From Chromatiales bacterium (lineage in GTDB: Bacteria; Pseudomonadota; Gammaproteobacteria; Thiohalomonadales; Thiohalomonadaceae): a stretch of DNA of 64,000 bases. Made by a program: the position numbers and the translations under genes. The notes under the pieces are model-generated. The model had not been told where the DNA came from, ran no database searches, and was given only the letters and a program-made list of their open reading frames with translations. The stretch lies in the NCBI GenBank assembly GCA_003251535.1, contig QKFD01000130.1, forward strand, positions 1 through 64,000, in the 5' to 3' direction. This document shows positions 8,293-18,654 of the stretch, one piece after another. Within the stretch, counting starts at the first letter, position 1. Every line of letters starts with the position of its first letter.

Positions 8293-11200
8293 CTATTGAG
8301 TGACGCCGGTGTGGCTCACCAGCGCCTTGATCAGCTTCAAGTAGTTGGCCACGAACTGCTTGGCCCCGCCCTGGCTGAGGCGGCCGCCGTCATACTCCAC
8401 CCGCAGCAGCAGCCGCTCGGTGAGTTGGGCGCGCAGCACCAGGTCAAAGCCGTAGCGCTCGCGCTCGGCGGCGGCGGTCAACAGCAGCAGCGGCCGGATG
8501 CCGTCAGCACTACGACTGAGCGGGGTCGTGCGGGGGGTCAGGCGGCGGGCGCTCCAGAGGCCGGTGTGGTGCTCCTCACGCACCGCCGCCGCCAGCTCGC
8601 GCAGACCGCGCACCGCGGCAAAGTCCAGCTCCAGCAGCACATACTCCGGCCGCGGGCTGAAGCCGACGGCCATCTCCAGCAGCGGGCTGCCCAGCAGCTT
8701 GTTGAGGTAGAGGGCGTAGATGGCCACCGCCAGCTCCATCGGCTCCACCCCAAACTGCTCCGCCGCCGCCGCCAAAAGGCGACTGCTGTCGCCATCCAAC
8801 TCGGCGCTCAGGGTCTCGGCCCGGGCCGGGCCTCCGTGCTGGATGAACGCCGCCGGGAAGGGCAGCGCCTGCGGCATCTCCTCCGCCTCGCCCCCCAGGG
8901 CGGCGCTGATGCGCGCCTTGAGCGCCGCCACCGTCGGGTTGGCGAAGATGTCGGCCACCTCCAGTACCCCGGGGTAGTGTTCACAGAGCGCGGCGTGCAT
9001 GGAGACCAGGCTGAAGGAGTTGCCGCCGACATCGAAGAAGCTGTCGTGGATGCCGATGGGGCGCTCACCGAGGATGCGCTGCCAGACCCCCACGATCTCC
9101 GCCTCCAGGGCGTCGCTCGCCTCCTCACGCGCCGCTGCCGGTGGCAGCGCCGCCGCGGAGAGGGCCGGCAGTTGTAGGCGATCGATCTTGCCGTTGGGGG
9201 TGAGGGGCAGCTCGGCCACCGCCACCACCACCGCCGGCACCATGTAGTCGGGCAGCGCCGCCGCGGCGTGGCTGCGTAGTGCCGCCGTCAGCGGCTCGGC
9301 GGCCCTCAGCTCGCTGGGGGCGTCGGGGCGCAGTGCGCAATAGGCCACCAGCACCGGATTGCCGGCGCTCAACTCGCGCACCGCCACCGCCGCCAAGGCC
9401 ACCGCTGGATGGCGCTGCAACACCGCCTCGATCTCCTGGATCTCGATGCGGTAGCCGCGCAGTTTGATCTGGCCGTCGCCGCGACCGTGGTAGATAAGCT
9501 CGCCCGCCTCGTTCCAGGCGACCCGATCACCGGTGCGGTAGATGCGGCCTGCCGGTTGGAAGGGGTCGGCGCGGAAGGCGGCGGCGCTCCGCTCGGGGTC
9601 GTCCAGATAGCCGCGGGCGAGGCCGGCGCCGGCGATCCAGAGGTCCCCCGTGCAGCCCACCGGCAGCGGTTGCAGGTCGCCGTCGAGCACATAGCAGCGG
9701 GTGTTGGCGATAGGCCGCCCCAGGGTCACCGCCCGGGCCTGGGTCAGCTCCTTCACGGCCGACCAGACGGTGGTCTCGGTGGGGCCGTAGACGTTGTAGA
9801 GCCGCAGCCCGCTCAGCCCTTGCAGCGGCTCCAGCAGCGCCCGCGGGAAGGCCTCGCCCCCCACCAGCAGCAGCGCCAGGCCGCCGAAGACGCTGGGGGC
9901 GGCGTGGGTGGCGAGCAGCGCCTGGATCCGGCTCGGCGTCGCCTGCATCACATTGACCTGCTGCTGGCGGATGAGCTGCACCAGGGCCGCCGGGTCGCGC
10001 TGGGCCGTCTCATCCGCCAGCACCAGACAGCCGCCGCGGGCCAAGGTGAGAAATAGCTCCAGCACAAAGATGTCGAAGGAGATGGTGGTGAGTCCCAGCA
10101 CCACCGGCCGCTCCGGCAGCGCCAGGGCGTCGCCCATGCCGTAGAGGAAGTTGACCACGCTGGCGTGTTCGATCATCACCCCCTTGGGTTGGCCGGTGGA
10201 GCCGGAGGTGAAGATGATGTAGGCGAGGTCGTCCGGGGTCGGTGCCTCCGGGCTCACCGACGGGGTTGTGGCCGGCAGCGCATCGGGGTCGAGTTGGCGG
10301 CCGGTGAAGCCGACCTGGGCGGCGAGTGGGGCGCGGGTGAGCAGGGCGGCGACGCCGCTCCGCTCCAACATGTAGCCGATACGGGCGGCCGGGTAGTCGG
10401 GGTCGAGGGGCACGTAGGCGGCGCCGACCGCGAGGCTGCCGAGCAGGGCGGCGATCAACCCCGGCCCACGCGGCAGCAGGATGCCGACCCGCTGACCGCG
10501 GCGCACCCCCAGGGCGTAGAGGTGGGCGGCCACCGCATCCACCTGTTGCGCCAGCGCCTGGTAGCTCAAGCGCTGGTCGCCAAAGATGAGGGCGCTCTGC
10601 TCGCCACTGGCCGCCACCTGGGCACGCCAGAGCGAGACCAGGGTCTCCCCCGCCGGCAGCGGCCGCTCGGTGTGGTTGAGGCCGTCGATGAGCAGCGTCC
10701 GCTCCGTCTCATCCAGCAGCGAGAGCTGACCCACCGGCTGTTGCGGCGCGGCCAACAGGCCGCGCAGCAGCTGCTCAAAGTGGCGCGCCCAGCGGCCGAT
10801 GGTGGTCGCCTGGAAGAGACGGCTGGCGTAGATGAAGTGGCCGTTAAGCCGCCCCTGCTGCTCGGTGATCTCCAGGGTGAGGTCGAAGGCCGAACCCTTG
10901 CTCGGCACCGGCAGGGTATCGATGGAGAGGGGGCCGCTCTGGTAGACCCGCCGGTCGCCGTTCTCAAAGATGAACATGGTGTCGAACAGCGGATTGCGGC
11001 TGAAGTCACGCGCTATTTGCAGCTGCCCCACCAGCTCATCTAGGGAGCAGTTGGGCTGGGCGTAGGCCTCCATGCAGGCGTCGCGCACCTGCGCCAGCAG
11101 CTGCTGGAAGGGGGCGGCCGAGTCCACCTGGGCGCGGATCAGCAGGGTCTGGGCGAACATCCCCACGGTCTGGTCAAACTGGCCGTTGGCGCGCCGGTCA

Positions 11201-18654: not shown

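What the first reader, a model, noticed from the sequence alone, without database searches (positions are those of the whole stretch)
8293..18654. MycA/microginin-type megasynthase in a probable sulfur-oxidising gammaproteobacterium
The order FAAL-ACP-KS-AT-ACP-aminotransferase-C-A-PCP is read directly from motifs. In Bacillus iturinics and cyanobacterial microginins this order makes beta-amino fatty-acyl peptides. Finding it next to a Sox-type background with AT-less PKS modules downstream suggests an undescribed beta-amino lipopeptide-polyketide.
Basis: partly seen in the sequence, partly recalled or inferred. Interest (0 to 1): 0.8.

Follow-up and report, generated by a model that had tools for sequence, protein, structure and literature searches.

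The report
Lipopeptide-polyketide assembly line with hydroxymalonyl genes
The window holds most of a gene set that probably builds a fatty molecule carrying a 2-hydroxy-3-amino acid joined to glycine; the hydroxyl seems to come in with an unusual carbon building block instead of being added later by an oxygenase, and the same gene set occurs in distantly related soil actinobacteria.

Summary
The 3453-aa gene at 8293-18654 (-) encodes FAAL-ACP-KS-AT-ACP-aminotransferase-C-A(Gly)-PCP plus an unidentified 190-aa tail, with catalytic motifs intact. Downstream lie a discrete AT and AT-less PKS genes.

Directly upstream sits the four-gene set for hydroxymalonyl-ACP (HCDH, FkbH, small ACP, acyl-CoA dehydrogenase), with no O-methyltransferase beside it and no monooxygenase found. 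Best reading: the first extender is hydroxymalonyl, so the product starts with an alpha-hydroxy-beta-amino fatty acyl-glycine. Microginins and puwainaphycins carry the same motif; in puwainaphycin it is assigned to an aminotransferase plus a monooxygenase.

It is not an iturin: bacillomycin BamA has no cis-AT, and the aminotransferases fall in different clades. Nor does it group with microginin.

The window is cut at a contig edge. The rest of the line is on contig C93 of the same genome. The whole line is colinear in Chromatiaceae MAG ppb02, Actinokineospora pegani and, over its contigs, Streptomyces globisporus. The AT of this family forms its own clade, and an acidobacterium with an AT of that clade also carries the FkbH-ACP pair.

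The chemistry is unproven, and MIBiG could not be searched.

The parts
16960..18654 (-). FAAL domain (aa 1-565) of the megasynthase: loads a free fatty acid onto the next ACP
16630..16902 (-). ACP1 (LGLSSL)
15310..16599 (-). KS domain, active-site Cys/His/His present
14155..15057 (-). cis-AT (GHSIG, carrier motif F-P-E, HPFH); member of the FkbH-linked AT clade; proposed hydroxymalonyl-ACP specificity
13645..13887 (-). ACP2 (LGIDSL)
12010..13407 (-). PLP aminotransferase (AMT) domain, class III, Lys in YGKVVGGG
10675..11997 (-). condensation domain (HHLIADG)
9160..10662 (-). adenylation domain, code DILQLGVVWK (glycine)
8875..9117 (-). PCP (GGNSF)
8296..8877 (-). C-terminal tail of about 190 aa, conserved only in ppb02 (45% identical); to my eye like the C-terminal part of a condensation domain, function unknown
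   Evidence: no confident model
6905..8170 (-). discrete malonyl acyltransferase (trans-AT), fabD type, groups with bacillomycin BamD
2130..6875 (-). AT-less PKS module KS-DH-KR-ACP
1..2108 (-). 5' part of the next AT-less PKS gene (KS...), cut by the contig end; the rest (DH-KR-ACP) is on G000:C93
18656..19828 (-). acyl-CoA dehydrogenase (FkbI/ZmaE role): last oxidation to hydroxymalonyl-ACP
   Evidence: FkbI 1R2J among the matches, not the best
19831..20094 (-). discrete ACP of 87 aa (FkbJ/ZmaD role)
20118..21203 (-). FkbH-type HAD protein (ZmaN role): glyceryl loading onto the ACP
   Evidence: TIGR01686, 267.9 bits, cut-off 146.65
21187..22038 (-). 3-hydroxyacyl-CoA dehydrogenase-like protein (FkbK/ZmaG role)
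22075..26339 (-). LolA-like protein, LolD-like ATPase and two FtsX/LolCE-like permeases; conserved next to the operon in ppb02 (60-75% identical); proposed export

Best explanation
This is the front half of a hybrid PKS/NRPS assembly line. FAAL activates a free fatty acid onto ACP1. FkbH, the small ACP, the HCDH-like protein and the acyl-CoA dehydrogenase turn a three-carbon glycolytic intermediate into hydroxymalonyl-ACP. The cis-AT of module 1 moves this unit to ACP2, KS condenses it, and AMT aminates the beta-keto group, giving a 2-hydroxy-3-amino fatty acyl chain. C-A-PCP adds glycine. The discrete AT then serves AT-less modules (KS-DH-KR-ACP twice, then KS-ACP), followed by two amino-acid modules and a terminal KS-AT-cMT-ACP-C module on contig C93. 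A type II thioesterase, an Sfp-type transferase, an outer-membrane protein and an ABC system complete the set. Shown: domains, motifs, gene order and conservation. Inferred: hydroxymalonyl selectivity, amination of that unit, the product and its export.
For: Domains and motifs. All four hydroxymalonyl-ACP genes are contiguous just upstream; butyrolactol has the same four-gene set, no O-methyltransferase nearby and labelling that supports hydroxymalonyl (PMC5355916). No standalone O-methyltransferase next to the operon and no monooxygenase in the cluster proteins scanned. The order HCDH-FkbH-ACP-ACAD-synthase is kept in ppb02 and A. pegani, and in S. globisporus with a loading AT in place of FAAL. 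The module-1 ATs of these four genomes form a clade (support 98) with carrier motif F-x-E; a hydrophobic first residue is proposed to mark ACP-linked extenders (PMC4207774). An acidobacterial AT (L067) joins that clade (99) although its AMT belongs elsewhere, and its genome holds an FkbH (59%)-ACP pair. In A. pegani the terminal cis-AT has lost its serine (GHDTG), leaving module 1 as the only intact cis-AT seen for this unit.
Against: No biochemistry. The carrier motif is not a clean rule: presumed ACP-linked ATs in other FkbH clusters have GYSxG and an R in the third position, and G207, which has FkbH-ACAD-ACP next to KS-AT-AMT, has P-A-R and no HCDH in view. In the two Chromatiales clusters the terminal AT (GHSLG) is intact, and the ppb02 copy groups with FkbH-adjacent ATs, so it could be the user. 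The HCDH and ACAD families are broad.
Confidence: 0.68

Rival explanations
1. The module-1 AT uses ordinary malonyl-CoA, giving a plain beta-amino fatty acyl-glycine as in iturins, and the hydroxymalonyl unit is used by the AT of the terminal PKS module on C93.
For: The terminal AT is intact in the window's genome and in ppb02, and the ppb02 copy falls in a clade with an FkbH-adjacent GYSLG AT of A. pegani. HAFH/HPFH-like motifs are common in malonyl ATs.
Against: The terminal AT has lost its serine in A. pegani although the operon is kept. The operon lies beside module 1 in all four genomes. The module-1 AT clade, not the terminal AT, recurs in an acidobacterium with FkbH-ACP. The terminal AT carries Q-C-K/Q-A-R and HAFH.
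Confidence: 0.15
2. The extender is methoxymalonyl-ACP, so the unit is 2-methoxy-3-amino.
For: The same four proteins are the core of the methoxymalonyl pathway; FkbM-type methyltransferases sit beside them in two Streptomyces plasmids.
Against: No O-methyltransferase lies next to the operon in the window. The only methyltransferase found is a CurJ-like C-methyltransferase domain in the terminal module.
Confidence: 0.07
3. It is an iturin- or microginin-type lipopeptide synthetase, with the neighbouring operon unrelated.
For: Same FAAL, KS and AMT logic; AMT similar to MycA.
Against: BamA lacks a cis-AT. AMT and AT fall in other clades. Gly rather than Asn or Tyr is predicted, with four more KS modules downstream. 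The operon stays with the synthase in four genomes.
Confidence: 0.07
4. The locus is decaying and makes nothing.
For: It is a fragmented draft genome; no expression data.
Against: Frames open over the whole line, catalytic motifs intact, colinear conservation with ppb02 at 45-75% identity.
Confidence: 0.03

Closest known systems
Iturin family synthetases (mycosubtilin MycA, bacillomycin D BamA)
   Same: FAAL-ACP-KS...ACP-AMT-C-A-PCP logic; AMT best match in the PDB is MycA 6KFM; discrete AT of the BamD type also present
   Different: BamA has no cis-AT; different AMT clade; Gly instead of Asn; followed by AT-less PKS modules; has hydroxymalonyl genes
Microginin synthetase (Microcystis aeruginosa LEGE 91341)
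   Same: FAAL start, KS-AT-ACP-AMT module, expected 3-amino-2-hydroxy fatty acid
   Different: FAAL is fused here and separate there; AT and AMT in other clades; no FkbH hit in that genome
Puwainaphycin synthetase PuwE
   Same: 3-amino-2-hydroxy acyl start from a FAAL-loaded fatty acid
   Different: There the hydroxyl is assigned to a monooxygenase domain beside the aminotransferase (PMC4219810); none was found here
Hydroxymalonyl-ACP supply of zwittermicin and butyrolactol (ZmaN/D/G/E)
   Same: The same four protein families in one operon, without an O-methyltransferase beside it
   Different: Here beside a FAAL/aminotransferase module; AT has GHSIG rather than GYSFG, and F-P-E rather than M-C-M
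Chromatiaceae MAG ppb02, Actinokineospora pegani and Streptomyces globisporus clusters (unstudied as far as I found)
   Same: Colinear assembly line with the same upstream operon
   Different: S. globisporus starts with a loading AT instead of FAAL; A. pegani has a dead terminal AT; the Lol-type ABC genes and the tail were seen only in the two Chromatiales clusters

Membership tests
Iturin-type synthetase | FAAL-ACP-KS-ACP-AMT start with AT supplied in trans (no cis-AT) | tested here: not met
   Cis-AT present here; none in BamA by Pfam
Iturin-type synthetase | AMT groups with Bacillus iturin AMTs | tested here: not met
   Separate clades; BamA pairs with Paenibacillus fonticola
Iturin-type synthetase | NRPS for a heptapeptide beginning with Asn | tested here: not met
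   Three A domains in the line, the first with a Gly code; four further KS modules
Microginin synthetase | AMT and AT group with cyanobacterial microginin synthetases | tested here: not met
Microginin/puwainaphycin 3-amino-2-hydroxy acid | alpha-hydroxy-beta-amino fatty acid in the product | not testable with these tools
   Needs a product; predicted from the operon and the AT
Puwainaphycin-type tailoring | monooxygenase domain next to AMT | tested here: not met
   No such domain in the cluster proteins scanned
Hydroxymalonyl-ACP pathway | FkbH, 3-hydroxyacyl-CoA dehydrogenase, acyl-CoA dehydrogenase and discrete ACP together | tested here: met
   order HCDH-FkbH-ACP-ACAD
Hydroxymalonyl-ACP pathway | no dedicated O-methyltransferase (otherwise methoxymalonyl) | tested here: met
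   None beside the operon; the only methyltransferase found is a CurJ-like C-methyltransferase domain
Hydroxymalonyl-ACP pathway | AT accepts an ACP-linked unit (hydrophobic residues at the RXR positions) | tested here: inconclusive
   F-P-E here and F-x-E in all family members, but controls show no single rule
Trans-AT PKS | AT-less KS modules plus a discrete AT | tested here: met
   P0002, P0003 and KS-ACP-C-A-PCP on C93 lack AT; discrete AT at 6905-8170
FAAL | groups with FAALs and carries the FAAL-specific insertion | tested here: met
   Best PDB matches are FAALs, aligned over the extra stretch between the A5-like motif and the following Gly-x-Pro segment, judged by eye; best fatty-acyl ligase model PRK09192

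The most novel reading that the evidence does not exclude
A monooxygenase-independent route to alpha-hydroxy-beta-amino fatty acids: hydroxymalonyl-ACP is condensed onto a FAAL-loaded fatty acid and the beta-keto group is transaminated on the line. The same line occurs in Chromatiales and Actinobacteria and exchanges its starter module (FAAL or loading AT).
Probability: 0.6. Interest if true: 0.65.

Novelty: new variant of a known kind. Interest (0 to 1): 0.53.

Why it matters
The 3-amino-2-hydroxy acid is the unit shared by aminopeptidase inhibitors such as bestatin and microginin (my knowledge). In puwainaphycin and tychonamide-type pathways it is attributed to an aminotransferase plus a monooxygenase. 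If the hydroxyl here enters with the extender unit, that is a second biosynthetic solution that can be recognised by one AT clade and a four-gene operon, and moved as a module. It would also put such chemistry in SoxB-bearing Gammaproteobacteria, which few people mine, and link it to cultured actinobacteria (S. globisporus, A. pegani) where the product could be isolated.

Tried and rejected
Iturin membership (rejected). Microginin membership by tree (rejected). A methoxypyrrolinone ending: I first took the terminal methyltransferase for an O-methyltransferase, but its best solved match is the C-methyltransferase CurJ, so I dropped the idea. The carrier motif as a stand-alone test: A. pegani's other FkbH clusters and plasmid FkbH clusters show it is not universal, so it counts only together with the AT clade. 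Structure of the 190-aa tail: AlphaFold2 gave mean pLDDT 42.9 with two sequences, so no fold search was made. A monooxygenase in the Microcystis microginin synthase ORF was not seen, and the ORF between the PKS and AMT genes in Planktothrix L036 is a transposase, so I rest the contrast on puwainaphycin (PMC4219810) and PMC13252402, not on microginin. Plasmid search with the AMT gave nothing above 51% identity. Paper searches found no study pairing hydroxymalonyl with an aminotransferase module; the library is partial.

Full report
WHAT IS THERE. The ORF at 8293-18654 (-) is 3453 aa and reads FAAL-ACP-KS-AT-ACP-AMT-C-A-PCP by Pfam. The FAAL assignment is backed by NCBIfam PRK09192 and by solved FAALs as best matches. 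The aminotransferase is closest in the PDB to MycA of mycosubtilin (428 bits; hemL-type enzymes reach about 209 bits). Active-site motifs are present in every domain I could check. The A-domain code is DILQLGVVWK, and the three homologous clusters have DILQ(L/I/V)GV(V/I)WK; I know this as a glycine code. After the PCP there is a 190-aa tail that only ppb02 shares (45%). To my eye it resembles the end of a condensation domain, but Pfam does not call it and no confident model was obtained.

WHAT WAS MISSED. Directly upstream, in the same orientation, are an acyl-CoA dehydrogenase (18656-19828), an 87-aa ACP (19831-20094), an FkbH protein (20118-21203; TIGR01686, 267.9 bits) and a 3-hydroxyacyl-CoA dehydrogenase (21187-22038). 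These are the four families that make hydroxymalonyl-ACP in zwittermicin and butyrolactol, and no O-methyltransferase lies beside them (PMC5355916). A LolA/LolCDE-like set follows to 26339 and is kept in ppb02 at 60-75% identity.

THE CLUSTER IS CUT. The window starts at base 1 of contig C98, inside an AT-less PKS gene. In ppb02 the homologous gene is whole; aligned to it, the C98 part ends about 40 bases from where the C93 part begins. C93 therefore very probably continues the cluster: DH-KR-ACP, then KS-ACP-C-A-PCP, C-A-PCP, KS-AT-cMT-ACP-C, a 420-aa protein with a signal-like start and a C-terminal Phe, and, judged from sequence, a type II thioesterase and an Sfp-type phosphopantetheinyl transferase (Pfam confirms the thioesterase in ppb02). 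The codes of the other two A domains (DGPFSGGVFK, DALWLGGTFK) look aliphatic, but I would not name the residues.

RELATIVES. In these three genomes the line is colinear: ppb02 45-75% identical, the actinobacteria mostly 36-63%. The operon order HCDH-FkbH-ACP-ACAD is also kept. In S. globisporus the cluster is spread over contigs and a loading AT-ACP (GASLG/VAVH) replaces FAAL. In 368 other genomes drawn across the class, only two have an AMT at E below 1e-140. One of them, G207, has FkbH, ACAD and ACP genes right beside KS-AT-ACP-AMT-C-A, but no HCDH was seen and the AT lacks the F-x-E motif.

TREES AND THE AT TEST. In the AMT tree the four clusters form one clade (100/96), apart from BamA and from the Microcystis microginin loci. 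In the AT tree (quick method) their module-1 ATs form one clade (98) with F-x-E at the carrier-recognition positions; K or R occupies at least one of those positions in 48 of 61 AMT-linked ATs, a count in which some loci appear twice. An acidobacterial AT (L067, F-I-E) joins this clade with support 99, while its AMT sits in another part of the AMT tree. A search made after this motif was seen found FkbH (59%) followed by the ACP in its genome, on a 4-kb contig that ends there. AT clade and extender operon thus go together where the AMT does not. FkbH also occurs in four of the seven other genomes searched at the same time, in other contexts, so this single case is supportive and not proof. The terminal AT is a possible competitor for the unit, but in A. 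pegani it has lost its serine (GHDTG) while the operon remains. Controls limit the motif's weight: other FkbH clusters use GYSxG ATs with a hydrophobic first residue but an R in the third position.

MODEL. Fatty acid to FAAL to ACP1; hydroxymalonyl-ACP to cis-AT to ACP2; KS condensation; AMT; 2-hydroxy-3-amino fatty acyl; glycine; two malonyl extensions with KR and DH (a dienoyl is expected); a further KS-ACP; two amino acids; one more ketide with C-methylation; release by the terminal C domain or the thioesterase. Steps up to domain identity and order are shown; substrate choice and product are inferred.

KNOWN OR NEW. Every enzyme family is known. The chemistry of the first module (hydroxymalonyl plus aminotransferase) is, as far as the searches reach, not described: paper searches found no pairing of the two, and plasmids and solved structures gave only AMTs about 50% identical or less. 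Puwainaphycin makes the same 3-amino-2-hydroxy motif, assigned to an aminotransferase plus a monooxygenase (PMC4219810), and PMC13252402 says the same for tychonamide-type pathways. MIBiG was not available, so 'undescribed cluster' is likely but not tested.

ORIGIN. PKS genes in the window have 70% GC against 61-64% for the neighbouring operon, ABC genes and chromosome, while the ppb02 homologue has 65%. With actinobacterial relatives at 72%, horizontal transfer is plausible but not tested.

Noticed in passing
window 26583-27455 and 27713-28645: Two tandem TraB/GumN-family genes, 90.6% identical over 896 bases: a recent duplication.
   Followed up: partly
window 58331-59464 and 60149-61132: Two related genes, 78% identical in DNA over 871 bases, with a nucleotidyltransferase-like motif (LFGSHARGDW); no NCBIfam hit.
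   Followed up: partly
G000:C58 (33,849 bases), C77, C92, C115, C120, C122, C44, C8: The same genome carries many more KS genes (21 matches), including 3149-aa and 3571-aa PKS frames on C58: at least one further large PKS cluster, broken over short contigs.
   Followed up: no
G207:C25 (L152, L153): Another gammaproteobacterium has ACP-ACAD-FkbH directly upstream of KS-AT-ACP-AMT-C-A-PCP, but with no HCDH seen and a P-A-R AT motif.
   Followed up: partly
G003:C17 (L132), about 33,000: The terminal-module AT of A. pegani reads GHDTG: catalytic serine lost.
   Followed up: yes
L065 (Thiotrichaceae S06.Bin195): HCDH-ACP-ACAD-FkbH next to an AMT-C-A synthetase of another AMT clade, with a GYSQG AT nearby: possibly an independent pairing of hydroxymalonyl genes with an aminotransferase module.
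   Followed up: partly
window 8296-8877: 190-aa tail after the PCP, only in the two Chromatiales clusters; possibly a remnant condensation domain or a docking element.
   Followed up: partly
window 55973-57778 and 55023-55577: SoxB (867 bits), with a divergent gene weakly like a Rieske iron-sulfur subunit (44.7 bits, below cut-off).
   Followed up: partly
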